This document shows, piece by piece, positions 151 to 36,151 of a stretch of DNA of 36,151 nt. Origin of the DNA: Noviherbaspirillum denitrificans (GTDB taxonomy: Bacteria; Pseudomonadota; Gammaproteobacteria; Burkholderiales; Burkholderiaceae_D); contig NZ_LSTO01000006.1 of assembly GCF_002211445.1 (NCBI RefSeq), positions 1,117 to 37,267 on the forward strand. The letters run 5' to 3'. The notes beneath the pieces are model-generated. The model had not been told where the DNA came from, ran no database searches, and saw only the letters and a list, made by a program, of their open reading frames with translations. Position numbers and translations under genes: made by a program. The first letter of the stretch is position 1; each line of letters begins with the position of its first letter.

Positions 151-873
151 CTAAGGCGCGCTCTTCAATGGAGGCGGGGCAGAAATCGCTCCAGCCGCTT
201 TTACACCCGCCTTTGCTTGAGCTGCTGCAATTACTTTTTGCATGTGTTGTTCACGCTCGTAGCGATGGACATACCACTCCTCCAAAAGGACCTCGATCAG
301 GCCGATCAGCAATTCGGCTTCATCCGGGTCGACATCTACAACAATGTTGATGTCCTTTTCCATATGCGCGCCGATATTCCCAATCTTTCTCACTGCATCG
401 ATTGCATCCCATGTAACGGAATCAATTTTTCCCGATAGTGCATCAATTTCGTCAACTAGGCGGGCCTTCTTGATATTCCAAAAATCACGGATGATGCCTT
501 GCAGGCAACGCCGGGATAACGTAGCGGACGCTTTAGGACTAAGCGATGCAATCTTGCACGCTTCTTCATAGTCTTGACGAATTGCCTCCGGAATATAAGC
601 GGGGAAAGATTTCGCTTTTGAGTCCGGCTTCAGACTCCATGTGAGCAACGGGGAGCCGACGACTGATCTGTTGGGGGCGTACTTTATTCGGTATAGCGCA
701 GCTTCAATTGTATATTCCTTGCAATCTCCATTCGGGCAGACAATTACGCTCGTATGAATGCCCAGATCCCCTTCTTTGTTGTCGCAATTAAAATAATGAA
801 TGTTGCCACTGCGATTGGCGTCGATAATCGTTGCGTTTTGTTTGCAATAAGGACACGTCCACACATTTGCCAT
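151..873 (-). CDS. DUF4145 domain protein with N-terminal zinc-binding cysteines
   Basis: This 240-residue protein begins with a Cys-rich segment (C7, C10, then C46 and C51) that probably binds zinc. A mainly helical DUF4145 region follows, around residues 90-215, including the RCLQGIIRDF and GNIGAHMEKD stretches typical of the family. The biochemical role of DUF4145 is unknown; such domains occur alone or fused to restriction-type proteins. The gene is isolated at the edge of the prophage, beyond the lysis genes, and is AT-richer than the structural genes. I infer accessory cargo, though it could be a flanking host gene if the phage end lies between 874 and 1078. The family call is fairly secure; the function is unknown. 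Confidence 0.75.
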   Translation of the reverse strand: MANVWTCPYCKQNATIIDANRSGNIHYFNCDNKEGDLGIHTSVIVCPNGDCKEYTIEAALYRIKYAPNRSVVGSPLLTWSLKPDSKAKSFPAYIPEAIRQDYEEACKIASLSPKASATLSRRCLQGIIRDFWNIKKARLVDEIDALSGKIDSVTWDAIDAVRKIGNIGAHMEKDINIVVDVDPDEAELLIGLIEVLLEEWYVHRYEREQHMQKVIAAAQAKAGVKAAGAISAPPPLKSAP

Positions 874-25899: not shown

Positions 25900-26040
25900 T
25901 CACGCGCCTTTTATCGGTCTGACCGACGCAACCACAACGACCGCATCCTCCTGGACGTCCGCTCCGGCCGTGACGACCGCATAACGATCGAGCGCCGGAC
26001 GGATAAGCCAGAGGAGGAGCCGTGCATACATGGCTTTCAT
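25900..26040 (-). CDS. Possible 46-residue protein, weak
   Basis: MKAMYARLLLWLIRPALDRY opens a short frame with a GGTGG element about 5 bases upstream. The first half is hydrophobic, so it could be a small membrane protein. There is no family support, and the plus strand here also has short frames with ribosome-site-like GAGGAGGAG at 26011-26019. The stretch 25898-26125 otherwise holds no convincing gene. Confidence 0.25.
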   Translation of the reverse strand: MKAMYARLLLWLIRPALDRYAVVTAGADVQEDAVVVVASVRPIKGA

Positions 26041-26125
26041 ACGACCACCTTCAAAAAATGGGCGGGAGGTTCCAGCGTGATAAATTGCAGTTTCCACACA
26101 ACAACGATCAACAAGGGAACTCCCA

Positions 26126-26359
26126 ATGCAACTGGTTTGCTTTTGGCCGACACGAGTCGGCACGGCGAAGATTCTTTTCAATCAATCGACCCGTCGCTTT
26201 CAAGTCGCCGTGGACGACGAGGTTCTTGGCGACTACCTGACTGCACAGCAGGCAGTGGACGATTTTTGTGGTGGGCATACGTTCAGTCACTCGTCCGGAG
26301 TCGACACGTCCACACTCGGCGCTCCGGACGACGTTGGGGATTGGCAGCGGATGAGGTAA
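26126..26359 (+). CDS. Small conserved hypothetical protein
   Basis: This 77-residue protein has a C-terminal pattern (SSGVDTSTLGAPDDVGDW) that I recognise in short unknown proteins of many proteobacteria. AAGGGA lies 7 bases before ATG. It is in the same orientation as 25586-25897. Its 3' end overlaps the 3' end of the minus-strand gene at 26287-26619 by 73 bases, a convergent overlap. Confidence 0.55.
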   Translation: MQLVCFWPTRVGTAKILFNQSTRRFQVAVDDEVLGDYLTAQQAVDDFCGGHTFSHSSGVDTSTLGAPDDVGDWQRMR

Positions 26360-26619
26360 TACTCGAGATCCGCAATCATTCCGCGCACATCCATGACACC
26401 CAGGCGCAACCGCACGACCTCGTCTCCCACATTGAAGCCGATACCGATCTCGTTGTAAGCGGCATCTACCGGAGTCACATTGCGCAAGCCGGCCGCGAGA
26501 TAGCTGCTCGGTATGCGCCGCTTTGGCTGCTCATCCGACAGCACCTCTGCAACTGGAGCGCTCTTGCACGGTTTCGCCCCCTCAGCAGGAGGGACAAGGC
26601 ACGACTTGATGGTTTTCAT
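26287..26619 (-). CDS. Early protein of unknown function, coupled to cro
   Basis: This 110-residue protein has a disordered Pro/Lys-rich start. An ordered part from about residue 35 follows (RIPSSYLAAGLRNVTPVDAAYNEIGIGFNVGDEVVRLRLGVMDVRG). ATG overlaps the cro-like stop (ATGA), so it is the second gene of the cro operon. No family recognised. Confidence 0.5.
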   Translation of the reverse strand: MKTIKSCLVPPAEGAKPCKSAPVAEVLSDEQPKRRIPSSYLAAGLRNVTPVDAAYNEIGIGFNVGDEVVRLRLGVMDVRGMIADLEYYLIRCQSPTSSGAPSVDVSTPDE

Positions 26620-26882
26620 GCAGGCACCTGCTCAGGACAGTTCACGACCGCTGCAGGCAACTGAAGGAGCTGCTCGCGAGTGCACTCGAACTCTGTGCCC
26701 TTAGATGCTTCGGCGATAAGCGCTGCGTAATTCGTCTCGCCGGTCCACTCGGTACGCGGCAAGCGACCTTTTTTCAGCCACTTGTAGACAGCAACTGGAG
26801 AGACGGAGCAAATCGAAGCAAGCACCGGCACGCCGAGCACCTCGGCTGCTTTCTTGATCGGAGGAATGATGGTCGTTTCCAT
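26616..26882 (-). CDS. Cro-like repressor
   Basis: This 88-residue protein has a YdaS/Cro-type helix-turn-helix (IKKAAEVLGVPVLASICSVSPVAVYKWLKKGRLP, about 9-42), the usual form of a small early repressor. It is divergent from the cI-like gene and starts a leftward operon. Its predicted -10 box ends 7 bases before the ATG and no Shine-Dalgarno is visible, so the mRNA may be leaderless. An operator lies across its promoter. The identification by position and fold is strong. Confidence 0.8.
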   Translation of the reverse strand: METTIIPPIKKAAEVLGVPVLASICSVSPVAVYKWLKKGRLPRTEWTGETNYAALIAEASKGTEFECTREQLLQLPAAVVNCPEQVPA

Positions 26883-26889
26883 GGCGCAA

Positions 26890-26918
26890 ATTAAACCACA
26901 GGTTAAATTCGCTGTAAA
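26890..26918 (-). promoter_or_regulatory. Predicted cro promoter
   Basis: On the minus strand TTTACA (26913-26918) and TTTAAT (26890-26895) are 17 bases apart, a good sigma-70 match. The expected transcription start falls at or next to the A of the cro ATG (26882). Confidence 0.6.
26891..26907. promoter_or_regulatory. Repressor operator O1 in the cro/cI gap
   Basis: TTAAACCACAGGTTAAA has arms TTAAACC and GGTTAAA around a 3-base spacer, with 6 of 7 positions pairing. It overlaps the cro -10 and spacer. Two related sites are at 27601 and 27625. Confidence 0.6.
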
Positions 26919-26929
26919 GCACCGGTTGG

Positions 26930-26958
26930 TTGAGTCATCAAATAGATCCTTTGACAAT
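26930..26958 (+). promoter_or_regulatory. Possible cI promoter
   Basis: TTGAGT (26930-26935) and GACAAT (26953-26958) are 17 bases apart, with the cI ATG only 6 bases after. This would make a leaderless cI message like lambda PRM. Both hexamers are weak, fitting a promoter needing activation. Confidence 0.35.
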
Positions 26959-26964
26959 CACCTC

Positions 26965-27345
26965 ATGGCACATCCGCTCGGAATCATCATTAAAGACAGG
27001 CTTAAAAGCCTGAAGAAGACGCAAGGCTGGCTCGCAGAGCAAGCCAACGTCTCGGATACAGCCGTATCAAAATGGATTGCTACAGGGAAGATTTCTCGCG
27101 AGAGCGCGAAGGATGTTTCCCAAATCCTCGGCATTTCGCTCGACGTCCTGCTCGGCGTGTCTGAGGATGCTCTCGCCCAAAGTCAGCCGTCGCTTTCCCT
27201 GGTCTATGTTGACGCCGAAGAACTCCGGCTGATTACCGCTTATAGAGAGTCGACCGCTATCGGCAAGGCCCTCATTTCAGCAGCTGCCGAGGGAGCCCCA
27301 CGAAGCGAGTCACTTGACATTATTCCGACTCGACACAAGTCGTAG
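26965..27345 (+). CDS. CI-like repressor without autocleavage domain
   Basis: This 126-residue protein starts at ATG 26965 (MAHPLGIIIKDRL). XRE-type helix-turn-helix is at about 10-60 (TQGWLAEQANVSDTAVSKWIATGKIS), followed by a helical tail (EELRLITAYRESTAIGKALISAAAEG) likely for dimerisation. There is no S24/LexA-like peptidase domain, unlike lambda CI, so RecA-stimulated self-cleavage is not expected. No Shine-Dalgarno is seen. It is divergent from cro and should keep the prophage silent through the TTAAACC operators. Confidence 0.75.
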   Translation: MAHPLGIIIKDRLKSLKKTQGWLAEQANVSDTAVSKWIATGKISRESAKDVSQILGISLDVLLGVSEDALAQSQPSLSLVYVDAEELRLITAYRESTAIGKALISAAAEGAPRSESLDIIPTRHKS

Positions 27346-27498
27346 CGGGCTCTGCGGCCGGAGCGGGAACTGCCTCCTAAACCGCTGCGCCGCCTCCATC
27401 AGTACCATTCTCGCCTCCGGCACCATCCCCCGGTAGGAATCACTCAGCTCCAAGATCTCCGCTTCGAGCGCGCTCGCATCGTTCAGCTTCGTTTTCAT
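27310..27498 (-). CDS. Small protein convergent with cI, unknown
   Basis: This 62-residue frame (MKTKLNDASALEAEILELSD, then SYRGMVPEARMVLMEAAQRF) has a helical pattern like the C-terminal part of phage repressors, but no DNA-binding domain. It overlaps the cI 3' end by 36 bases on the opposite strand. A predicted promoter TTGCCA-17-TGTAAA lies upstream across an inverted repeat. It might interact with cI, but this is speculative, and only a weak ribosome site (AGAGAG) precedes ATG. Confidence 0.45.
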   Translation of the reverse strand: MKTKLNDASALEAEILELSDSYRGMVPEARMVLMEAAQRFRRQFPLRPQSPLRLVSSRNNVK

Positions 27499-27529
27499 CT
27501 CTCTACTCGTTGTTAATCGGAATTTACAC

Positions 27530-27544
27530 TTAGCACATTGCTAA
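27530..27544. promoter_or_regulatory. Inverted repeat, possible operator
   Basis: TTAGCACATTGCTAA has 5-base arms around a 5-base spacer. It sits within the spacer of a predicted leftward promoter (TTGCCA then TGTAAA, 17 apart) in front of the 62-residue gene. The sequence differs from the TTAAACC operators, so another regulator may use it. Confidence 0.4.
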
Positions 27545-27600
27545 ATGGCAACAAATCCCATGAACATGAGATAAGTAAAGGTTAAAATTTTCCCCCAATA

Positions 27601-27617
27601 TTAAACCCTAGGTTGAC
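27601..27617. promoter_or_regulatory. Repressor operator O2
   Basis: TTAAACCCTAGGTTGAC has a perfect left arm TTAAACC and a 5/7 right arm. It overlaps the -35 of the rightward early promoter. Confidence 0.5.
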
Positions 27618-27642
27618 TATAAAAATAAACCCATGGTTTAAT
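27613..27642 (+). promoter_or_regulatory. Predicted rightward early promoter
   Basis: TTGACT (27613-27618) and TTTAAT (27637-27642) are 18 bases apart, 34 bases before the ATG of the first gene in the 27.7-31.7 kb operon. Two repressor-type operators overlap it, so it should be shut off in the lysogen. Confidence 0.6.
27625..27641. promoter_or_regulatory. Repressor operator O3
   Basis: ATAAACCCATGGTTTAA has a perfect GGTTTAA right arm and a 6/7 left arm, spacer of 3. It covers the spacer and -10 of the rightward promoter. Confidence 0.6.
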
Positions 27643-27676
27643 TTGCCCCGTCGCAACCTTATTGACGGAGCGCAAA

Positions 27677-27931
27677 ATGGGAAATCAGAAGCCGCAGTAC
27701 CGCAACACCTTCCGCCGCATCCGGCCGGTGACAGTGCGCGCAATGCTGTCACTCGCCATCAAGCCCGCCGCCAACCGGATCCGCCGCTGGCTCATCAATT
27801 TCGAGCTGCAGCACAACGAATACCAGCTCGGACACATCCAGGAGAACCGGCTCAACGACTTCCTCGTTGAGGGTGAGCTCCACAAGCGCCAGGTGCACCT
27901 CAAGTCCGAACTCCGCCGCCTGGAGGCGTGA
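27677..27931 (+). CDS. Unknown early protein, first gene of rightward operon
   Basis: This 84-residue, basic, helical protein (MGNQKPQYRNTFRRIRPVTV, then WLINFELQHNEYQLGHIQEN) uses ATG 27677 with GGAG 6-7 bases upstream. The C-terminal half is a likely coiled coil. No family recognised. Its stop overlaps the next ATG. Confidence 0.6.
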   Translation: MGNQKPQYRNTFRRIRPVTVRAMLSLAIKPAANRIRRWLINFELQHNEYQLGHIQENRLNDFLVEGELHKRQVHLKSELRRLEA

Positions 27932-28230
27932 TGATCGCGGCCGAGCTCCCCGTTCAAGCAGACGACACCGCAGCCGCGAGCAAGATCGCCGTCATTCTGG
28001 AACGCGTCACCGACCCGGAGGCGCGTTCCAAAGTGCTGGCAATCGGATCCCGCATCGCCGCCATGGAGTCCGCCGGCTACCAGGTCAGCACTCCCGTCCG
28101 CGTCCGTCCCCGCACGCAATACGTCTTCGCCGAATGGCACCTCCTCGTCAAGAACGCCGGTTTCCGGTGCGTCCTGTCCTTTTTCATCAATGAGGCCTTC
28201 GAGCCCACTCCGAAAGCACGCCGCAAATGA
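27931..28230 (+). CDS. Unknown early protein
   Basis: This 99-residue protein starts at ATG 27931, overlapping the preceding stop by one base, with GGAGG 4 bases before. The first half is helical and the second (YVFAEWHLLVKNAGFRCVLSFFINEAF) is amphipathic strand/helix. No family recognised. Part of a tightly overlapping early operon. Confidence 0.6.
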   Translation: MIAAELPVQADDTAAASKIAVILERVTDPEARSKVLAIGSRIAAMESAGYQVSTPVRVRPRTQYVFAEWHLLVKNAGFRCVLSFFINEAFEPTPKARRK

Positions 28231-28778
28231 ATCTCGAAAACTGCATCCTCACCTACTCCGGCCGCTACGTGAACCTCCTCAAGCCGGATCCGACAACGAT
28301 CCACATCACCGACATTGCACACGCGCTGTCGCAGATCAACCGCTTTGGAGGCCATACGCGCCGCTTCTACAGCGTCGCGCAACACTGCGTCCTGGCATCG
28401 CACCTGGTGCCGCTCAAGTACCGTCTCCATGCCCTCCTCCATGACGCCGCCGAGGCCTACTTCGGCGACATGGTCCAGCCGCTCAAGCGCCTCGACGGCA
28501 GCGCCCAATACCGCACATGGGAAAGCATGATGCAGGCCGAGATCTTCGACCGCTTCGGCCTCGGCATGGAGCAGTCCGACGAGTGCAAGGCCTGCATCCA
28601 GGAGGCGGATCTCATCATGCTCGCCACAGAGCGCCGCGATCTCATGCCGCCCGATGCAACGCCGTGGGCAATCCTCGAAGGTGTCAAGCCGCGCAACGGG
28701 AACATTAGTCCGGTGTCCTCGCACCTGGCCGAGTCGATGTATCTGTCCCGCTTCAAAGAGCTCGCCGGAGTCCTGTGA
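28227..28778 (+). CDS. HD-domain phosphohydrolase
   Basis: This 183-residue protein has the HD-domain metal ligands: H53 in SVAQHCVLASH and H72-D73 in ALLHDAAEAYFGD, with a further Asp near residue 127 (EADLIM). It resembles YfbR-like nucleotidases that hydrolyse deoxynucleoside monophosphates. In a phage early operon it could adjust nucleotide pools or remove host signals. Family call is firm; substrate unknown. ATG overlaps the upstream stop. Confidence 0.82.
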   Translation: MNLENCILTYSGRYVNLLKPDPTTIHITDIAHALSQINRFGGHTRRFYSVAQHCVLASHLVPLKYRLHALLHDAAEAYFGDMVQPLKRLDGSAQYRTWESMMQAEIFDRFGLGMEQSDECKACIQEADLIMLATERRDLMPPDATPWAILEGVKPRNGNISPVSSHLAESMYLSRFKELAGVL

Positions 28779-29008
28779 TGATCGCTACAGCCGTCGCATT
28801 TAGCGAGAACGACCTGGTCGAATGGGACAGCTCTATCGACGGGACGAACACTGGCGCTGTGCGCCACCTCACCCGCAGCATCGAGAACGGGCAGGCCTTT
28901 GCGGTCGTCGAGGTGGACCATGAGCTACCGGGAATCCTGGAGTGCGTTCCCCTCAACCAGCTCCGCAAGACCAAATTTGGCAAGCCTCGGCAGGAGGCAT
29001 CCAAATGA
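28778..29008 (+). CDS. Unknown small early protein
   Basis: This 76-residue, beta-rich acidic protein (MIATAVAFSENDLVEWDSSI, then GQAFAVVEVDHELPGILECVPLNQLRK) may be a small beta-barrel. I use ATG 28778, which has CGGAG 7 bases upstream and overlaps the preceding TGA. No family recognised. Confidence 0.55.
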   Translation: MIATAVAFSENDLVEWDSSIDGTNTGAVRHLTRSIENGQAFAVVEVDHELPGILECVPLNQLRKTKFGKPRQEASK

Positions 29009-29337
29009 AACGCAAAGACCGTCAAACGCTTGCCCTGCTCCACTTAAAAGATCACGGCCGCACAACCGGCAAATCCCTTTCCGAGTCCATCGGCGTGACC
29101 ACAAAGAATATCGCTACGGTCATGAAGCCCCTCATTGCCGCACAGGCTGTAATCAAGGGACGTGACAAGGCAACGCAGTCCTCCACCTACACCATCACGA
29201 AAACGGGCCTCGCCGCACTTGTTCGCAAAGATCCTCCGGTCGAGGCCCCTCGCTATAACCCGTCGGATCCGTTCGGTTTGCTCGCAAAGCTGCGTGCTGC
29301 ACAGACCTCCATCCCCACTGTCGCATCCCATCGTTGA
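29005..29337 (+). CDS. Winged-helix DNA-binding protein
   Basis: This 110-residue protein starts at ATG 29005 with AGGAGG 7 bases upstream. Residues 1-70 form a winged-helix pattern (LALLHLKDHGRTTGKSLSESIGVTTKNIATVMKPLIAAQAVIKG, then STYTITKTGLAAL). It is probably a regulator; its place directly before the ParB-like gene suggests local control. Fold call moderate. Confidence 0.65.
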   Translation: MKRKDRQTLALLHLKDHGRTTGKSLSESIGVTTKNIATVMKPLIAAQAVIKGRDKATQSSTYTITKTGLAALVRKDPPVEAPRYNPSDPFGLLAKLRAAQTSIPTVASHR

Positions 29338-29347
29338 AGGAAAAGCC

Positions 29348-31216
29348 ATGACCGCAACCCAAACCAATTTTGCAGAGCCCCACTTCGGCACTATCCCCCT
29401 TGCGTGCGTGATTCCCTCCAAGACCAACCCGCGCAAACACTTCGACGAGTCCGCACTGCATGAGCTCGCCGAGAGCATCCGGCAGGTTGGCGTCGCACAG
29501 CCGATCCTTGTCCGTCCGCTGCCGACCACCGAGAGCATGATCGACTGCGTCGAGATCGTCGCCGGCGAGCGCCGTTACCGCGCCTCCAAACTGGCAGGCC
29601 TGCAGTCCATCCCTGCGATCGTGCGCGAACTCACAGACGTCCAGGTGCTGGAGATCCAGGTCATCGAGAACCTGCAACGCCAGGACGTGCATCCGATCGA
29701 GGAGGCGGAGGGATACGACCAGCTCATGCGCCAACACGACTACACCGCAGAACAGCTGGCCGACAAGGTCGGCAAGAGCAAGGCCTACATCTATGGCCGC
29801 TTGAAGCTGTGCTCTCTCGCATCCGAAGCACGCGAGGCCTTCTTCGCCGGCAAGATCAACGCCTCGATTGCAGAGCGAATCGCCAGGATGCCGGTCCTCG
29901 CCCTGCAGGCAAAGGCAACGCAGGAGATCGTCCACAACTACGGACAACCCGAGCCGATGTCATTCCGCCGCGCCGTCGAGCACCTCCAGGCGCGCTACAT
30001 GCTCGATCTCGCTCACGCAAAGTTTGCGATCAAGGACGCCAAGCTCGTATCAGCTACTGGATCCTGCCTCTCCTGCCCAAAACGGACCGGTAATCAGCCG
30101 GAGATCTATCACGACGTCGATGCAGACGTCTGCACTGATCCGGATTGTTTCGAATCAAAGGTTAACGCACACAACGAGCGCAAAGCCGCAGCCGCGCAAA
30201 AGTCAGGTCTGCCGATTTACGCAGACGGCATGGAGGCCTATACCAAGCTCCGGGAAAACAACCAGGTGTCCGCATATGACGGCCTCTACAAGATGGACCG
30301 GTTGGCCAAGTCCTCGATGTCCAACACGCCCATTGAGGACGTCATCCCCGCCGACCAACTGCCGAAGCCTGTCGCGTATGTCAAAGGCAATGACGGCGAA
30401 ATTGATGCGGTGTATGAAAAGTCCGCTATCCAGTTCGCCTTGGAGAAGGCGGGCCTCTGCCTCACCCTGGAGAAGCACAATGCGCTCTTGCAGGAAAAGA
30501 TGAGCGGCAACGCACGCGATCCGAAAGTCTCGGAGAAGGAAAAGCAGGCCGAGGCTGAGCGTCGCGAGCGCACGAAAAAGGCCGAGCTGGAGACAACAAT
30601 CCGGAAAGCGGTATATGCAGAGGTCCGCAGCAAGATCCTCCAGGGAGACGGGCACTTAACCGCCCTACGTCATATCGCAAAGCGTCTTTGCGACGAATGG
30701 TCTTTCCCACACGTCATTGCGAGCGACTACAAGTTCAACGTCCTCAACTTCAATGAAGCTGCGAAGTTCATCGATTCCGCCAGTCTCGAAGAAGTTGTCG
30801 CCTTTATCCTCGGAATGACGATTGGCGAGTGCGTCCAGGTTGACGCCTTCGACATGGACGACGACGAGCACCTTGAGAATCCTTGGTATCTCGGCCTCCT
30901 CGATGTTGCAAAGGCCTGCGACATCGAGCACGACAAAATCCGATCGGAACATACCCCGAAACCTGCAGAGCAGCAGGATCTGCCAGTCGCAGCTGAAACG
31001 CCGAAGAAGAAGGGGCAGCAAAAGACTGCAGAAACGGCCGCAGAGGCACCGAAAATGGCCGAGACGACCAAGGATGCCACCGACACGAAAAAAGCGGCTC
31101 CAGCGAAGCCTACGCCAGCCAAAAAGGCCGCGGCAACAAACGCAAAGACCGACGAGGTCCCCGCTACCGCATGGCCGTTCCCCACCGCCGCGGAAATGGC
31201 CGCAAAGGGCAAGTGA
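29348..31216 (+). CDS. Large ParB-like DNA-binding protein
   Basis: This 622-residue protein starts at ATG 29348 with AAGGA upstream. It has the ParB N-terminal domain: NPRK at 27-30, GERRYRA at 73-79, ENLQRQDVHPIEEAEGY near 109-125, then a helix-turn-helix (TAEQLADKVGKSKAYIYGRLKL). A Cys cluster (about 239-272, CLSC...VCTDPDC) may bind zinc. The C terminus is a long Lys/Ala/Pro-rich tail. No ParA ATPase is visible nearby. It may bind specific DNA, possibly the four palindromes, one of which lies in this gene. It is more than twice normal ParB length. Confidence 0.82.
   Translation: MTATQTNFAEPHFGTIPLACVIPSKTNPRKHFDESALHELAESIRQVGVAQPILVRPLPTTESMIDCVEIVAGERRYRASKLAGLQSIPAIVRELTDVQVLEIQVIENLQRQDVHPIEEAEGYDQLMRQHDYTAEQLADKVGKSKAYIYGRLKLCSLASEAREAFFAGKINASIAERIARMPVLALQAKATQEIVHNYGQPEPMSFRRAVEHLQARYMLDLAHAKFAIKDAKLVSATGSCLSCPKRTGNQPEIYHDVDADVCTDPDCFESKVNAHNERKAAAAQKSGLPIYADGMEAYTKLRENNQVSAYDGLYKMDRLAKSSMSNTPIEDVIPADQLPKPVAYVKGNDGEIDAVYEKSAIQFALEKAGLCLTLEKHNALLQEKMSGNARDPKVSEKEKQAEAERRERTKKAELETTIRKAVYAEVRSKILQGDGHLTALRHIAKRLCDEWSFPHVIASDYKFNVLNFNEAAKFIDSASLEEVVAFILGMTIGECVQVDAFDMDDDEHLENPWYLGLLDVAKACDIEHDKIRSEHTPKPAEQQDLPVAAETPKKKGQQKTAETAAEAPKMAETTKDATDTKKAAPAKPTPAKKAAATNAKTDEVPATAWPFPTAAEMAAKGK
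30121..30134. repeat. Dispersed palindrome, copy 3 (14 bp)
   Basis: TGCAGACGTCTGCA is within the large ParB-like gene and encodes part of DADVCTD. It has the shared core but loses the outer G/C pair on the left. Confidence 0.8.
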
Positions 31217-31218
31217 CC

Positions 31219-31398
31219 ATGTCTCAGAAGTTCAATTTTCTGGCACGCCGCACCGCCTCGACGAAAGCCGAGCAGGAGCTGCGTCGCCAGTTCCCCAGGC
31301 GCTCCCGCGCCTGGATCTCAGCCAAGGCCGCAAGAATTGCGGGCAACACTGACATCACCAGCGAGCTGCGCGCTCCAACACGCGCAGAAGTGAAATGA
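31219..31398 (+). CDS. Small basic protein, unknown
   Basis: This is a 59-residue frame (MSQKFNFLARRTASTKAEQE...). It starts 2 bases after the ParB-like stop and overlaps the next ATG. Arg/Lys-rich and helical. The ribosome site is weak, so translation is probably coupled. Function unknown. Confidence 0.5.
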   Translation: MSQKFNFLARRTASTKAEQELRRQFPRRSRAWISAKAARIAGNTDITSELRAPTRAEVK

Positions 31399-31670
31399 GC
31401 GAAACCGAACTCCTCACCAAGCTGGCCGACCTCCTCGGCAAGCAACTCCGTCCGGCGCTCCCGGTTGACATTGACCTTTGGGACGTCTCGACGATCGCCC
31501 AATTCTTGAAGCGCAGCGACTCCGCCGTCCGCGAGCGGATCTGCCCGCTCCCCGACTTCCCGAAGGCGATCCGCCTCCCGTCGCAAGGCGGCCGCGGTCA
31601 TCCGCTCTGGAAGGCAAAAGAGGTGATCGAGTGGGCGGAGAAATATCGCGAAATTAGGACGAGAAATTAA
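31395..31670 (+). CDS. Excisionase / AlpA-like DNA-binding protein
   Basis: This 91-residue protein has a MerR-type small helix-turn-helix with wing: LWDVSTIAQFLKRSDSAVRERI at about 28-49, then FPKAIRLPSQGGRGHPLWKAKEVIEWAEKYR. This is the standard form of phage excisionases and AlpA-like regulators. It is the last gene of the rightward operon and, without the inserted cassette, would adjoin the integrase. Excision role inferred. Confidence 0.72.
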   Translation: MSETELLTKLADLLGKQLRPALPVDIDLWDVSTIAQFLKRSDSAVRERICPLPDFPKAIRLPSQGGRGHPLWKAKEVIEWAEKYREIRTRN

Positions 31671-31685
31671 TCGCCAATGACCAAT

Positions 31686-32519
31686 CTAATTTACCGGTAT
31701 TTCTAGAGTAGTGATGAGCAGCTCATCCTCTTTTTTCGGTGCTTTAGTACTGTATTGGAATGCCTTATGTACATGGTTGTGATCGGCATACAAACCCTTA
31801 ATCACGTCATGACTGTCATAGCTCAATATCCAATTGAACTTGGCACTTTTAAGAGAAGAGGATAGCGCCACATGGTCCTTCAGCTTGTAGTGATGACGAT
31901 AAAGCTTACGTCCCTGAATAAAATAGGGTGGATCCACATAGAAAAGGCTAGTAGTTCTTCGCTTGTATTCCGTAATTACGTCGAGCGCATCTCCATACCG
32001 GACTTCCACTCGGTCTGCGAGATCACTGAGTCTTTTAATCTTATCGATCAAATCTTCTTTATTGAAGCGACAATCAATGCTATAGGCAGACGACTGCTTT
32101 TGCCCGCCGATCGGCCCCGAATGCAAGACTCCTGAGAAGTTTGTTCGATTAAAGAATAAGGCCGCAAACGCCAGCTGAACTTCATCTTCTTCTGATGGCT
32201 CTTCGCACTTCAGCAAAGGTTGAAGTTCATGCCACGTTTTGAGTGAAACGGTCACATTCTTGATTTTTTTTATGAGCTTATCTGGATGCTCAAATGCAAC
32301 CTTCCAGAAAGAGTACATGAGGGGATCGCGCTCCGAAATTACTGCTTCCGAGCAAACTTTTTCTGACAGGAGCGCTAACGTTACAGCTGCGCTTCCGGCA
32401 TAGGGTTCCACGAGCTTCTTCCCCTCGAGCCCGTTATAAATGATCAGGTCCTTAATTACCTTTGTAAACGACGATTTACTTCCGGGGTAGCGGAAGGGAG
32501 TTTTGACAATCTCGGTCAT
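31686..32519 (-). CDS. D12-class N6-adenine DNA methyltransferase
   Basis: This 277-residue protein transfers a methyl group from SAM to adenine in DNA. The features are TPFRYPGSKS at 7-16, motif I VEPYAGSAAVTLALL at 37-51, FFNRTNFSGVL at 122-132 and DPPY at 196-199. This is the Dam family layout; the target sequence cannot be read. It overlaps the nuclease-like gene by 4 bases (ATGA) as last gene of a three-gene operon. Base composition is visibly AT-richer than the phage core genes, suggesting recent acquisition. In this context it likely protects self DNA. Confidence 0.9.
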   Translation of the reverse strand: MTEIVKTPFRYPGSKSSFTKVIKDLIIYNGLEGKKLVEPYAGSAAVTLALLSEKVCSEAVISERDPLMYSFWKVAFEHPDKLIKKIKNVTVSLKTWHELQPLLKCEEPSEEDEVQLAFAALFFNRTNFSGVLHSGPIGGQKQSSAYSIDCRFNKEDLIDKIKRLSDLADRVEVRYGDALDVITEYKRRTTSLFYVDPPYFIQGRKLYRHHYKLKDHVALSSSLKSAKFNWILSYDSHDVIKGLYADHNHVHKAFQYSTKAPKKEDELLITTLEIPVN

Positions 32520-33529
32520 GCCGTGGCAGCCTGCTTCAGCTCTGTGATTCGTTCAGTAACCCAAGCGGCTATCTCAGGAAAATCAGTGGTACGTTCAACT
32601 GTAAGTCTTTGATCTGCCGTTAGTCCCAGCCCCCTGTAGGCAAGTACTGGGATCATATATCGATAGTAGATCGCGCCATACCTCTTCGTTAGCACATGCA
32701 ACTGTTGCTTGAGTGTCGCTCCACCGGTGAGTGGGATACAGAATGGGATGAAGAGTGCGGCCGTCGGCTCGGAAGCTGGTATTTCTGAAAACCAGTTCTC
32801 GTGAAATGGACGGAAATATTCGAGTACGCTCTTACTTGGCCAGTTGCCACCGGAAGCCGCTTGCCCAAGCATATAAAAGGTGCCTGCTGCATTATCGTTT
32901 CGAGGCTTCCATGCGATGACGTCAATACCTTCATCTTTGGGATTTGTTGATACCCCTGGCAGAGGAGCTTCCCGTACAGTGCCCTCCCCAAACAGTGCAT
33001 AAGTTGAACGCAGTTTGTCCAGGTAGGGAGATCCATCTGGACGAGGAAATCCGAATGCTATAGCACAGCCTTCAAGTGCTCCGGCTGCTGCCCAAGTAGC
33101 GCACGCCTGAAACAAGTCTCGAATCCTGTTATTTAACTCAAAATCAAAGCGATCAAGCTCGAAAATCTCGGAACTCTTTACGCTCGACAGGAAGAGGCAG
33201 AAAAGATAAAGCATCGCCCCGTCGGATATATCGTTTTTCAGGAGTAGCTCTTCCTCAGTGTCGTTAAACTGGAAGGGATAATGATCACCCAAGCATTCCA
33301 TTCGCTTTTGGAATTCTGCAAGTATCTCTTCCAAAAACTGCTCATCCGGAGCGCCGTCTTCTAACGCGCGCCCTTCTGGATCTGAGCTTTCGGAGTTTCG
33401 CCTACGGTCCCATGCTCTTTGCAAACTCCGGAGCTGACCAACCGAGTACTCAGAACATAAGACATGAAATTCAAACCAATCTGCGATTACGTGAGGATCG
33501 CGATCCAACGGAATTTGGGCTAACGGCAT
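32516..33529 (-). CDS. Putative PD-(D/E)XK-like nuclease of cargo cassette
   Basis: In this 337-residue protein the first 150 residues are helical. Residues 150-235 contain GCAIAFGFPRPDG, then GIDVIAWKP (D203, K208) and MLGQAASGGNWPSK (Q223). The order GxD...Q with nearby Lys resembles restriction endonuclease-fold cores of the Mrr type, with Q in place of the usual acidic residue. I recall similar unnamed proteins in defence islands but no assigned name. It sits between a ParB-fold gene and a methyltransferase with tight spacing. Nuclease assignment is tentative. Confidence 0.5.
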   Translation of the reverse strand: MPLAQIPLDRDPHVIADWFEFHVLCSEYSVGQLRSLQRAWDRRRNSESSDPEGRALEDGAPDEQFLEEILAEFQKRMECLGDHYPFQFNDTEEELLLKNDISDGAMLYLFCLFLSSVKSSEIFELDRFDFELNNRIRDLFQACATWAAAGALEGCAIAFGFPRPDGSPYLDKLRSTYALFGEGTVREAPLPGVSTNPKDEGIDVIAWKPRNDNAAGTFYMLGQAASGGNWPSKSVLEYFRPFHENWFSEIPASEPTAALFIPFCIPLTGGATLKQQLHVLTKRYGAIYYRYMIPVLAYRGLGLTADQRLTVERTTDFPEIAAWVTERITELKQAATA

Positions 33530-33540
33530 TTGCGGTTACT

Positions 33541-34719
33541 TTACTTCTTTTGGAGTGGCTTTTTTGTGCCTGGAGCACCCTTGCTTTTCGGCGTCGCCGG
33601 AGGATTTACTTCTGCACTTTTCTTCTTCATTACGGTAAGGAGAATATCAGCCTGCTGCGAGATCTCACGCGCTATCGCGAGGAGGTTCGGTTCACCATTG
33701 TATTTTGGTAGCGCATCTATAACAGAACTGAGCCGCACATGGGCTTGCGCCAACACTTCGCTAAACACGTCGTAAGGCGAGCGCACCTCGTTATAAGCGA
33801 CACTAAGCTTCTCCCCGGTGCGAATTCTCTCGAGAGCAACTGGGTGGGCAATTACCTCACCCACATGCTTCAAGTCAGGGTTTTGAGACTTAACTAATGG
33901 TTGAGCGTCATCTCGTTTGTCGCCGTAAAGATAAAGTAAAACCTCTTTTAGCTTGCCCTCATTTGCTCTTGGAACTGGCGAAGTTACAGGCTCCTTGCTC
34001 CACCCTTTGTCAAGTCCGAGGAAGTCCTGATATTCCGTCCGTCCAAGCGCGGTATACAAATGCGAAAACGCGAATTTTCCTTTGTTATACCGGTTCTTAA
34101 TGTCAAAAAGTTTACGTCCCTCTGCTTGCTCCAGTACGAAGATGCTAGAGATGTACGCGCGAATAGTATCGTTATCATCACCAAGCTGCCGCGCGATTTG
34201 ATCGATAGTGAGTCCATTCTCGCGCTCGCGCTTATACCAATCTGACACGAAGCGTGCCTTGGCATAAGCATCCCATCGACTAGGGCCGTTAATATGCTTA
34301 AAGCCAATGAATGCCTGTGCGTCGCTCTCTTTGTCGACACGCCAGACTGTGACTTTTTCAACGGACCTGCGAACATCCGCGCGTATCCTTGGAAGGGAAA
34401 TTCTGCATTTCGCCGCCAGGTCCGGATCTTTTATTAGCTTTATCGATGCAAGCCGGCGATTGCCCTCTAGGACTCTATACGGCCCCCCATTGGGTCCCAT
34501 TACAATTAGAGGCTCAAAGTCTAAGTAAGTATTGGTGCAAATCGACGTAATGACTTCGTCGAGAGGTGAGATCTCGTTCAACGCCGAGATAATGTCCTCA
34601 TCGTTCGAAGTGCTGTAGTCGTTTCCATTCAGTAGACGAGGATTTTGGCGGTCAAACTCGAGAAGGTCCGTTGGACAGCCACGAGTTGGCGCTCCTGATA
34701 TCGGCGAAAAGGCGGGCAT
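33541..34719 (-). CDS. ParB-fold protein of cargo cassette
   Basis: This 392-residue protein has a ParB/Srx-like N-terminal domain: NPRL at 26-29 and EGNRRLASIKLI at 85-96, a variant of the GERRxRA box. A helix-turn-helix follows at about 169-195 (LTIDQIARQLGDDNDTIRAYISS), and the C terminus is Lys/Pro-rich. It differs clearly from the larger ParB-like protein at 29.3 kb. It is first in a leftward operon with the nuclease-like and methyltransferase genes. ParB folds bind DNA and nucleotide; here it may supply recognition or regulation. AT-rich composition suggests transfer. Confidence 0.75.
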   Translation of the reverse strand: MPAFSPISGAPTRGCPTDLLEFDRQNPRLLNGNDYSTSNDEDIISALNEISPLDEVITSICTNTYLDFEPLIVMGPNGGPYRVLEGNRRLASIKLIKDPDLAAKCRISLPRIRADVRRSVEKVTVWRVDKESDAQAFIGFKHINGPSRWDAYAKARFVSDWYKRERENGLTIDQIARQLGDDNDTIRAYISSIFVLEQAEGRKLFDIKNRYNKGKFAFSHLYTALGRTEYQDFLGLDKGWSKEPVTSPVPRANEGKLKEVLLYLYGDKRDDAQPLVKSQNPDLKHVGEVIAHPVALERIRTGEKLSVAYNEVRSPYDVFSEVLAQAHVRLSSVIDALPKYNGEPNLLAIAREISQQADILLTVMKKKSAEVNPPATPKSKGAPGTKKPLQKK

Positions 34720-34867
34720 AATTTCCCAATATTATCTTGTTTTTGCAGGCGGCTATTGTACCGGTAGGCCACAAAACCTTAAAGTACACTGTTACACAAC
34801 TTCGGATACGATTGTCCTTCAGCAAAGTAAATGGGTCGGGAAGCTGACTTTTCGTAAGGATTAGGTT

Positions 34868-34883
34868 GTGCAGACGTCTGCAC
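34868..34883. repeat. Dispersed palindrome, copy 4 (16 bp)
   Basis: GTGCAGACGTCTGCAC is in the 210-bp gap between the cargo ParB-fold gene start and the integrase stop. It is identical to copy 2 and shares the core of copies 1 and 3. The rest of the gap should hold the promoter of the cargo operon, but I see no strong match. Confidence 0.85.
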
Positions 34884-34929
34884 TTCTTCCGGGTAGCACT
34901 TGCGAATTTCCGCATACGCCATTCAGTTG

Positions 34930-35982
34930 CTAGTCAAGGCGACTGGCAATTTCAGCGGCCGTCGCGTTGTAGTAGATCTGCAGCATCCTCAAGTCCCTAT
35001 GCCCCACCATTCGGGCCAATTCCAGAACGTTCAATTTCTTCGCCAGGCGCGTGATCGCCTCATGTCGCGAGTCATGGAAAGTCAGGTCCGTGATCCCGCA
35101 TCGATCCTTGGCCTTGCGGAATAACGCATCGAGGGACTTCGAAGTGATCCCGAAAACGGTCCCACCCTCCTCCGGCTTCGGCAAATAGGACAGCAGCTCG
35201 ACGGCACGCTTGGAGAGCGGCACATCCCGCTTTGTCCCGTTCTTCGTCTGCGGCAAGTGCGCAACCTGCCCCTGGACGTGCTCCGGCACCAATGCGCAGA
35301 TCTCGCCGGCACGCATTGCAGTCTCGATTGCAAAAAGGAACGCAACAGCGACGCGTTGACTCACCGTCATCGCCGGTCCGTCATCGAAGCCGAGCGACAA
35401 GCACAGGCGCTCGATCTCGTCCTCCCGGATCCGCCGATCGCGAGGAGGCGGGTTTTTCGGCCGTCGGACGTCTTTCGTCGGACTTTCGGCAAGCCACTTC
35501 CACTCACGCCGCGCCGTGTTGAAAACGTGCGACAGGAGGTTAAATTCACGGTTGACGGTCGATCCGCTCACGGTCCGGATCGGTGCCGGATCCGCCCTCT
35601 CGATCTGCCGCTGCGCGACCTCCATACTCATGCGGGCATCACGCAACATGCCAAGATGCTCAGACGTCAGATCGGATAGCTTGATGTCGCCGAACTTGAC
35701 CGGCCGCTCACCGACCTCGATCTCGGCCAGCACGCCCATCCGGAGCGCCTCGTATCGGTGCCCGCGCTTCGTCCTGGAGACTTCCTTCTCATACCGGTGG
35801 AACGCGTCACGGACGGTCTTGCCGGCAATGACCGCGGTTGACTTGTTCTGCCGGAGCTCCGTCTCACGCTGCGCCGCCCAAGCTTGCGCCTGCGCCTTGG
35901 TCTGGAATGTGCCGGAATCGCGCTGCCCTTTGACATACACCTGCACGCGCCACACGTTGCCGTCTTTTTTGAAGCTCGCCAT
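34930..35982 (-). CDS. int: Tyrosine recombinase integrase
   Basis: This 350-residue phage integrase joins attP and attB. An AP2-like arm-binding N terminus (MASFKKDGNVWRVQVYVKGQRDSGTF) and a core-binding helical domain (about 55-175) precede the catalytic domain. Its residues are R224 (ETAMRAGEICAL), a Lys near 247-251, H303-x-x-R306 (FHDSRH), H328 (MVGHRD) and Tyr at 337 or 338 (QIYYNATA). All are present, so it should be active. It lies next to a tRNA end, the usual target. Confidence 0.95.
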   Translation of the reverse strand: MASFKKDGNVWRVQVYVKGQRDSGTFQTKAQAQAWAAQRETELRQNKSTAVIAGKTVRDAFHRYEKEVSRTKRGHRYEALRMGVLAEIEVGERPVKFGDIKLSDLTSEHLGMLRDARMSMEVAQRQIERADPAPIRTVSGSTVNREFNLLSHVFNTARREWKWLAESPTKDVRRPKNPPPRDRRIREDEIERLCLSLGFDDGPAMTVSQRVAVAFLFAIETAMRAGEICALVPEHVQGQVAHLPQTKNGTKRDVPLSKRAVELLSYLPKPEEGGTVFGITSKSLDALFRKAKDRCGITDLTFHDSRHEAITRLAKKLNVLELARMVGHRDLRMLQIYYNATAAEIASRLD

Positions 35983-36013
35983 TTCGTAAATCTTTCGGAG
36001 ATTTTTCGTAAAT
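35982..36013. repeat. TTTCGTAAAT repeats beside int
   Basis: TTTCGTAAAT occurs at 35982-35991 and 36004-36013, flanking CTTTCGGAG. The 18 bases at 35983-36000 match 40-57 at the left edge at 16 positions. Integrase arm sites or int promoter control are possible. Confidence 0.45.
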
Positions 36014-36067
36014 GGTAGCAGTAAAACGCGGTATTTTTAGGGGATTTGCGAGTCGCGCCGAAAATGC

Positions 36068-36111
36068 AAAAAGGCCGTAAACCCTTGCATTTACTTGGAT
36101 TGCGGCCTTTT
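36068..36111. terminator. Rho-independent terminator, likely bidirectional
   Basis: AAAAAGGCCG (36068-36077) and CGGCCTTTT (36103-36111) pair over 9 bases with A/T runs outside the GC stem, so it could end transcription in both directions. It lies downstream of the tRNA on the minus strand and upstream of int. Confidence 0.65.
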
Positions 36112-36135
36112 AACTGAATACTGGAAATATGCTGC

Positions 36136-36151
36136 TGGTGCCCGAGACCGG
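36136..36151 (-). tRNA. 3' end of a tRNA gene (cut by window edge)
   Basis: On the minus strand the edge reads CCGGTCTCGGGCACCA, which fits the 3' half of a T-stem, the acceptor 3' strand CTCGGGC, discriminator A and encoded CCA. A partner 5' strand GCCCGAG is common in bacterial tRNA-Leu, so Leu is likely but not provable from 16 bases. Confidence 0.6.

What the first reader, a model, noticed from the sequence alone, without database searches (positions are those of the whole stretch)
31686..34719. Three-gene cargo operon: ParB-fold protein, PD-(D/E)XK-like protein and adenine methyltransferase
Seen: three minus-strand genes with 11-bp and -4-bp spacing, AT-richer than the phage core. They are inserted exactly between the excisionase-like gene and the integrase, a typical cargo slot. 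Known: D12 methyltransferases protect DNA in restriction systems, and defence genes cluster at such prophage sites. Inferred: the ParB-fold protein replaces or guides the recognition function while the middle gene cuts unmodified DNA. I cannot match this gene set to any named system (R-M, BREX, DISARM, Dnd, Pgl), so it may be an undescribed defence module.
Basis: partly seen in the sequence, partly recalled or inferred. Interest (0 to 1): 0.85.

Follow-up and report, generated by a model that had tools for sequence, protein, structure and literature searches.

The report
Three-gene ParB, nuclease, methylase cassette
A prophage carries three linked genes (a ParB-type DNA-clamp protein, a probable DNA-cutting enzyme and a DNA-marking methylase) that recur together in other phages, with the methylase type differing between lineages, and that most likely act as a restriction-modification-like immune system.

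Summary
In detail: three minus-strand genes (31686-34719; 11-bp gap, 4-bp overlap; GC 0.483 against 0.598) lie between a small HTH gene and the integrase of a 36,151-bp prophage. The set is conserved. MID (the 337-aa middle protein) lies directly behind the ParB-like gene in 87 of 89 loci laid out (the other 2 are contig-cut), and a DNA methyltransferase is the next gene in 81 of 89: D12 adenine (36), C5 cytosine (40) or N6/N4 (5). A MID-only genome search gave 6 further loci; 6 of 6 have ParB and a methyltransferase. MID matched no Pfam, NCBIfam or PADLOC family credibly, but its invariant D203 and near-invariant Q223/K233 align with a Mrr-type PD-(D/E)XK core. The ParB protein models as KorB/ParB/Noc. 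Two of the genes are relatives of PD-Lambda-5, whose loci lack MID and whose protein A has another C-terminus: a sister system, not a member. In P2-like coliphages it sits in the known defence hotspot, and in one pair of phages ParB-MID differ as a unit beside a 98%-identical methylase. Best reading: ParB-dependent restriction of unmethylated DNA, the methylase marking self. Phage protection was not tested, and MID's fold match to solved structures is not significant.

The parts
33541..34719 (-). ParB-like protein (392 aa): ParB/Srx-type motif EGNRRL (85-90), HTH-type region, helical C-terminus
   Evidence: PADLOC PD-Lambda-5_A N half 6e-16; PHROG 3694 2e-78, unknown function; AF2 pLDDT 92.1, Foldseek to KorB/ParB/Noc, best E 2e-6, prob 1.00; profile hit to ParB 4umk 6.6e-6; E85-L90 invariant in the 53 rows of A5
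32516..33529 (-). MID (337 aa): predicted Mrr-like PD-(D/E)XK nuclease; candidate active site D203, Q223, K233, perhaps E20 (lysine moved from the usual QxK position)
   Evidence: no credible Pfam/NCBIfam/PADLOC family; PHROGs 14650/3984 of unknown function; AF2 pLDDT 93.1; HHalign to Mrr_cat sets E 3.6e-4 and 5e-5, scores 36.4 and 41.9 against at most 18.0 in 100 shuffles; residue counts
31686..32519 (-). D12-class N6-adenine DNA methyltransferase (277 aa), DPPY motif present (196-199)
   Evidence: PF02086 2e-17; PADLOC PD-Lambda-5_B 7e-88; PDB methyltransferases 7m6b 1e-15 and 2dpm 6e-6; alignment A3
34930..35982 (-). tyrosine integrase, right flank of the insertion slot
   Evidence: PF00589 1e-20; PHROG integrase 4e-59
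31395..31670 (+). small gene with weak HTH/DNA-binding matches, excisionase-like by position, left flank of the slot
   Evidence: PHROG 4996 8e-15 (unknown function), PHROG 668 HTH 2e-5
36136..36151 (.). 16-bp attachment core (right side); its twin lies just before window base 1 in the host contig; overlaps the 3' end of a tRNA-Leu(TAA)

Best explanation
A phage-borne restriction-modification-like system of three parts. The methyltransferase marks self DNA (prophage plus host) at its site (inferred from family). The ParB-like protein, probably an NTP-binding clamp with its own DNA-recognition domain, loads on DNA and reads whether it is marked; on unmarked invading DNA it recruits or licenses MID, a Mrr-like PD-(D/E)XK nuclease, which nicks or cuts; on methylated DNA loading or licensing is blocked. 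Shown: conserved three-gene linkage, predicted ParB fold, nuclease signature of MID, three methyltransferase classes as partners, location in the P2 defence hotspot. Inferred: cutting of unmethylated DNA, NTP binding and control, protection of the lysogen against other phages.
For: MID directly 3' of ParB, same strand, in 87 of 87 loci that reach MID, of 89 laid out. Methyltransferase adjacent in 81 of 89; of the 8 without, 5 are cut by the contig end, L002 ends one gene later, L008 and L009 are related Methylococcaceae loci. Reverse test with a MID profile: 4 hits outside the window's genome in 398 genomes and 2 in 369, 6 of 6 with ParB and a methyltransferase (3 D12, 2 C5, 1 N6/N4). Methyltransferase class follows the ParB tree with at least 4 changes over 52 labelled rows of 56. 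MID: D203, E20, R76, Y108, R290 in 63 of 63, Q223 62, K233 60; the 3 without K233 all have K225, a canonical QxK. HHalign to Mrr proteins above shuffles and five other families; a weak PDB restriction-endonuclease hit at the same residues. BFVD rows named PD-(D/E)XK or Mrr-like at ranks 1, 4, 9, 12, none at E <= 0.001. ParB structure hits. P2 hotspot between gpA and portal, known for defence (PMC9122126 and PMC9519451, passages). Precedent for a ParB-fold NTPase that spares modified self DNA: DndI (PMC11662687, passages). ParB-MID pair different beside a near-constant methylase.
Against: No assay. Foldseek of the MID model finds no solved structure at E <= 0.001 (best 6qnz, E 0.2, prob 0.28, TM 0.29) nor a viral one (best E 0.0098). 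The PDB sequence hit to the restriction enzyme is E 0.6 and ranks behind an unrelated protein at 0.12. The K225/K233 exchange is one clade on the ParB tree, so one event. L008 and L009 have ParB-MID without a recognisable methyltransferase, and L014 has a split MID and a methyltransferase but no ParB found. A co-variation test of the methylase recognition region with ParB or MID gave nothing clear.
Confidence: 0.7

Rival explanations
1. PD-Lambda-5 itself: the cassette is simply a PD-Lambda-5 locus whose effector part was split off.
For: MTase matches PD-Lambda-5_B at 7e-88 and ParB matches the N half of PD-Lambda-5_A at 6e-16; 53 of 53 ParB relatives match PD-Lambda-5_A models.
Against: The profile match covers columns 11-246 of 387 only; MID has no match to PD-Lambda-5_A (prob 0.1%); 0 of 6 two-gene PD-Lambda-5-type loci show MID in the stretch fetched (roughly 1.5 kb on each side or less, methyltransferase next to A).
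Confidence: 0.06
2. Selfish stabilisation: the triplet is an addiction module like classical type II R-M that kills cells losing the prophage; defence is a side effect.
For: Nuclease-like gene next to a methylase on a mobile element; addiction by R-M systems is recalled knowledge.
Against: Position in a defence hotspot and divergence of the ParB-MID pair beside a constant methylase fit selection by other phages better; not exclusive with defence.
Confidence: 0.1
3. MID is a structural or DNA-binding partner and the effector is the ParB-fold protein, or the system acts by blocking replication without cutting.
For: No significant fold match for MID; the usual QxK lysine is absent in 59 of 63 MIDs; ParB/Srx proteins with nicking activity are mentioned in PMC12839542 (passages).
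Against: D203/Q223 conservation, lysine relocation and Mrr similarity above shuffles.
Confidence: 0.12
4. Not immunity: the methylase protects phage DNA from host restriction and ParB-MID serve partition or regulation of the prophage.
For: Methylases occur alone in phages (recalled); ParB-fold proteins do partition; PMC9122126 reports putative partition systems in the P2 hotspot (passage).
Against: The triplet is also in cellular contigs, once (L135) beside genes that I read by eye as type I modification and specificity genes; the window prophage already has a separate ParB-domain protein. I made no search for ParA next to the pair.
Confidence: 0.08

Closest known systems
PD-Lambda-5 (Vassallo et al. 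2022, PMC9519451; PADLOC PD-Lambda-5_A/_B)
   Same: D12 methyltransferase of the same PADLOC family; ParB-like N-terminal half; reported protective against phages, and said by its authors to appear to be a compacted prophage version of an R-M plus Abi system (passages)
   Different: two genes, no MID in 6 loci seen; ParB protein has another C-terminal part; D12 methyltransferase in those 6
Mrr / MspJI restriction enzymes (PD-(D/E)XK with QxK)
   Same: same D...Q signature in the nuclease core
   Different: those cut modified DNA (recalled); MID has a methylase and a ParB partner, and its lysine has usually moved 8 residues on
SspE / DndI / GmrSD (ParB/Srx-fold NTPase plus HNH)
   Same: ParB-fold NTPase coupled to a nuclease and to DNA modification status (DndI: PMC11662687, passages)
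   Different: nuclease is PD-(D/E)XK-like on a separate gene, no HNH hit; the mark would be base methylation
Type II restriction-modification
   Same: nuclease-like gene plus methyltransferase in one unit
   Different: a third, ParB-like gene beside MID in every MID locus examined except L014; one nuclease family partnered with three methyltransferase classes

Membership tests
PD-Lambda-5 | B: D12 methyltransferase of the PADLOC family | tested here: met
   7e-88 over residues 5-274
PD-Lambda-5 | A: full-length protein with its own C-terminal part | tested here: not met
   best model matched by residues 20-171 only; HHalign ends at column 246 of 387
PD-Lambda-5 | two-gene unit without a third protein | tested here: not met
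   MID present here and in 87 of 89 ParB-family loci, not found in 6 of 6 PD-Lambda-5-type loci
Type II R-M | methyltransferase adjacent to nuclease | tested here: met
   81 of 89 loci; nuclease by signature only
Type II R-M | nuclease cuts the unmethylated site | not testable with these tools
   needs biochemistry
Mrr/MspJI-type nucleases | PD-(D/E)XK core with D...QxK | tested here: inconclusive
   D203 63/63, Q223 62/63, QxK lysine 4/63, K233 60/63; HHalign 37% and 67%; Foldseek not significant
SspE/DndI/GmrSD | DUF262 domain with HNH (DUF1524) | tested here: not met
   no such Pfam hit in the three window proteins or the 63 MIDs; the other ParB relatives were not scanned with Pfam
BREX/DISARM/Pgl/Dnd | signature genes of these systems in the cassette | tested here: not met
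ParB/Noc/KorB (fold) | N-terminal NTP-binding domain plus HTH domain | tested here: met
   18 Foldseek hits at E <= 1e-3, all ParB, KorB or Noc, on a predicted model; nucleotide binding not tested

The most novel reading that the evidence does not exclude
PD-Lambda-5 would be a second branch of the same ParB-reader principle with another effector.
Probability: 0.4. Interest if true: 0.85.

Novelty: new variant of a known kind. Interest (0 to 1): 0.72.

Why it matters
It would join two fields: ParB clamps, known from chromosome partition, and restriction-modification. It gives a first idea of what the hypothetical proteins in the P2 hotspot of Wphi-type coliphages do (query covered to at least 80% in 103 of 5,426 complete E. 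coli genomes), suggests how PD-Lambda-5 may work, and offers a test of whether a clamp can sense base methylation. Since MID has no family model in the three named libraries searched, current defence annotation may miss the system or report part of it as PD-Lambda-5 (inference).

Tried and rejected
Co-variation between the methylase recognition region and windows of ParB or MID: inconclusive, dropped; the recognition-region borders were my guess. DNA relatives of window 26000-36151 in the phage collection: none by megablast; of the MID gene in the plasmid collection: none by megablast. MID in the phage collection by its own sequence: none, although relatives are there (found through ParB). MID and the ParB family show no profile similarity to each other. 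Promoter and terminator scans: no more than in shuffles. Literature: ten counted searches in an open-licence PMC library; in the listings and passages seen I found no description of a ParB + nuclease + methyltransferase triplet. Seen were: PMC9519451 one section and passages; passages of PMC12629846, PMC12839542, PMC12373910, PMC11662687, PMC13092281 and PMC9122126; all others only as listings. Supplements, subscription papers and preprints outside the library were not seen, so a supplementary table (for example Table S5B of PMC9122126, mentioned) may list the genes. Recalled, from no call: the name MspJI for PDB entry 4f0p and its catalytic residues, what Mrr and MspJI cut, addiction by R-M, cos at the end of the Wphi record.
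Full report
What is there. The window is a complete prophage: in host contig C1 a 16-bp repeat stands just left of window base 1 and again at bases 36136-36151, the latter overlapping the 3' end of a tRNA-Leu(TAA) gene. Genes for capsid, a lambda-family portal and a GpA-type terminase are present. Near the right end three minus-strand genes form an operon-like run: a 392-aa protein (33541-34719), a 337-aa protein called MID here (32516-33529) and a 277-aa protein (31686-32519), with an 11-bp gap and a 4-bp overlap and GC 0.483 against 0.598 for the rest. A promoter and terminator scan found no more matches than shuffled sequence.

The slot. The cassette sits between a small + strand gene and the integrase. 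Five relatives of the integrase were opened (L143-L146, L148). In two (L148, 50% identity; L146) a small convergent gene overlaps the integrase end by 4 bp with nothing between; I judge these small genes equivalent by eye and position, blastp at 1e-4 did not link them to the window gene. L143 and L145 have other neighbours, and L144 is cut close to the integrase.

What the proteins are. The 277-aa protein is a D12 adenine methyltransferase (PF02086 2e-17; DPPY present) and matches PADLOC's PD-Lambda-5_B at 7e-88. The 392-aa protein has no Pfam hit above cut-off but its N-terminal half matches PD-Lambda-5_A (6e-16); an AlphaFold2 model (53-row alignment, pLDDT 92.1) finds 18 PDB chains at E <= 0.001, all KorB, ParB or Noc. 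MID has no credible family in Pfam, NCBIfam or PADLOC: of 63 family members scanned, 0 hit Pfam at 0.01, 1 hit NCBIfam (a molybdenum cofactor enzyme at 0.002, taken as chance), and PADLOC gave five families with one member each at 0.004-0.01. PHROGs 3984 and 14650, both of unknown function, match 59 and 56 of the 63.

MID as a nuclease. In 63 MIDs E20, R76, Y108, D203 and R290 are invariant, Q223 is in 62 and K233 in 60. In a model with pLDDT 93.1 the order is helix 134-152, strand 155-158, helix 169-180, strand 204-207 with D203 just before it, strand 219-224 holding Q223, helix 236-246, strand 256-260; apart from the extra helix this is the order of a PD-(D/E)XK core. A profile search of the PDB lists a restriction endonuclease (4f0p, MspJI by recall) second, at E 0.6, behind an unrelated receptor protein at 0.12, but aligned on D203 and Q223. 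HHalign against 25 Mrr_cat proteins from related genomes gave score 36.4 (E 3.6e-4, 37%); against 12 of the 25 chosen for a clear motif (15 matched the pattern, 3 dropped by hand) 41.9 (E 5e-5, 67%). One hundred column-shuffled copies, run against the 25-protein set only, reached at most 18.0, and five other families at most 23.5. The usual QxK lysine is present in 4 of 63; the 3 MIDs that lack K233 are among these 4 (Fisher p 1e-4), but the four form one clade on the ParB tree, so this is one relocation. Against this, Foldseek of the model finds nothing at E <= 0.001 in the PDB (best E 0.2, a nicking enzyme) or BFVD (best E 0.0098, a PD-(D/E)XK protein; Mrr-like at rank 4). I take MID to be a nuclease at about 0.8.

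Conservation of the set. A scan of viral contigs with the ParB alignment returned 80 loci (the tool kept the best 80 of 116; one, L022, is the window's own phage and several are near copies of one another). With 6 genome-contig loci (L004-L009), L002 from the genome search and 2 plasmid loci (L012, L013), 89 were laid out. Left out were L014 (Microvirga: MID in two overlapping pieces with a D12 gene beside it, no ParB found), L010 (a 41-residue hit) and other copies of the window. MID follows ParB directly on the same strand in 87; the 2 others end inside or right after ParB. A methyltransferase is the next gene in 81: D12 in 36 (23 convergent downstream, 10 co-directional downstream, 3 upstream), C5 in 40, N6/N4 in 5. 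Class was set by a D12 profile and by blastp clusters; Pfam confirmed C5 on two members and N6/N4 on one. Of the 8 without, 5 are cut by the contig end, L002 ends one gene later with a gene that the methyltransferase profiles do not hit, and L008/L009 (one Methylococcaceae lineage) lack one; tblastn with the window's D12 enzyme found no clear remnant. After dereplication of ParB at 88%, 56 rows remain: 25 D12, 22 C5, 5 N6/N4, 4 none.

Reverse test. Searching 398 and 369 genomes with the MID profile gave 4 and 2 hits outside the window's genome; 6 of 6 have ParB upstream of MID and a methyltransferase next to the pair (3 D12, 2 C5, 1 N6/N4). Taking in the loci first fetched with MID (L010 and the window's own copies left out), ParB is adjacent in 15 of 16 (not in L014) and a methyltransferase in 13 of 16 (not in L002, L008, L009). 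The family is rare per genome but the linkage is tight. One of the six (L135) follows two genes that I read by eye as type I modification and specificity genes. A PADLOC scan of 105 neighbours of 14 non-viral loci shows type I R-M, HEC-08, DUF3644 and PDC-S70 models hit by one or two members each among 139 families, 25 shown; it does not name the loci and is not a measured enrichment.

Exchange of parts. On the ParB tree (quick method, 56 rows) the rows with C5 partners fall on one side and those with D12 or N6/N4 on the other, with at least 4 changes of class over the labelled rows. P2-like coliphages give a closer view. Phage Wphi has gp98 (ParB), gp96 (MID) and mth (C5) between the record's end and gpA; phage vB_EcoM-12474III has the same three in the same order between portal and gpA. 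Their methylases are 97.8% identical and the DNA from the methylase into gpA about 93.6%, yet ParB is 33.0% and MID 27.0% identical: the pair differs as a unit beside a near-constant methylase, which an exchange would explain. The one C5 partner examined (L072) resembles M.HaeIII along nearly its full length (1dct, 9e-48), so a GGCC-like site is a guess to test. The Wphi triplet is matched over at least 80% in 103 of 5,426 complete E. coli genomes; 36 more match at 90-95% identity with less coverage, and the 4 of these among the 15 rows listed match only in the methylase gene. The one that I opened has a ParB-MID pair identical to that of 12474III. This locus is the P2 hotspot known to carry anti-phage systems (PMC9122126 and PMC9519451, passages; the word ParB does not occur in either main text).

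How it probably works. A methylase that marks DNA, a clamp-type protein with a DNA-recognition domain, and a nuclease are what a restriction system needs. That ParB and MID stay together while the methylase changes class suggests that they form the restricting unit, and that the ParB reader rather than MID may link cutting to the mark. DndI, a ParB-fold NTPase proposed to leave phosphorothioated self DNA through NTP hydrolysis (PMC11662687, passages), is a working precedent. Everything about activity is inference.

Membership. It is not PD-Lambda-5 as PADLOC models it: homology of the ParB proteins stops at column 246, MID is unrelated to PD-Lambda-5_A, and 6 of 6 two-gene PD-Lambda-5-type loci show no MID. 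It is a sister with a shared reader domain and methylase. No HNH or DUF262 hit was seen, so it is not SspE, DndI or GmrSD, and the three proteins hit no BREX or DISARM model in the lists shown. By logic it is restriction-modification-like, so I rate it a new variant of a known kind.

Noticed in passing
window 151-873 (-): 240-aa DUF4145 protein (PF13643 1e-11) at the other, left end of the prophage, in DNA as AT-rich (GC 0.481 for bases 1-1000) as the cassette; a second likely cargo gene.
   Followed up: partly
G000 contig C6, 1-37267 (L015, L016): A second, 100% identical copy of the whole prophage in the same assembly, on a scaffold with runs of N and different flanking DNA; may be a second integration, the free phage, or a scaffolding artefact.
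   Followed up: partly
window 29162-31216 (+): A separate, larger protein with ParB_N and HTH_ParB domains just left of the cassette; the prophage thus carries two ParB-fold proteins.
   Followed up: no
L111-L114: Weak PD-Lambda-5_A hits in open frames of 709-763 aa; the window ParB also matches PADLOC PDC-M38A (715 positions). Possibly a third branch of ParB-reader systems; the link between the two is not tested.
   Followed up: no
L106 and L116 (G092): PD-Lambda-5_A appears split: matches to its N part and C-terminal part lie about 1.7 kb apart, with a D12 methyltransferase in the stretch of the latter.
   Followed up: no
L135 3403-6342: D12-ParB-MID triplet directly behind two genes that read by eye as type I modification and specificity genes, as if two modification systems were stacked.
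   Followed up: partly
L014 5953-6928; L059 5899-7049: MID (L014) and ParB (L059) read as two overlapping ORFs, so these copies look broken or mis-sequenced.
   Followed up: no
L051, L053, L054, L081 MID: One clade of MIDs with a canonical QxK (QCKTG) where most others have the lysine 8 residues on; L053 has both. A natural case for studying lysine migration in nucleases.
   Followed up: partly
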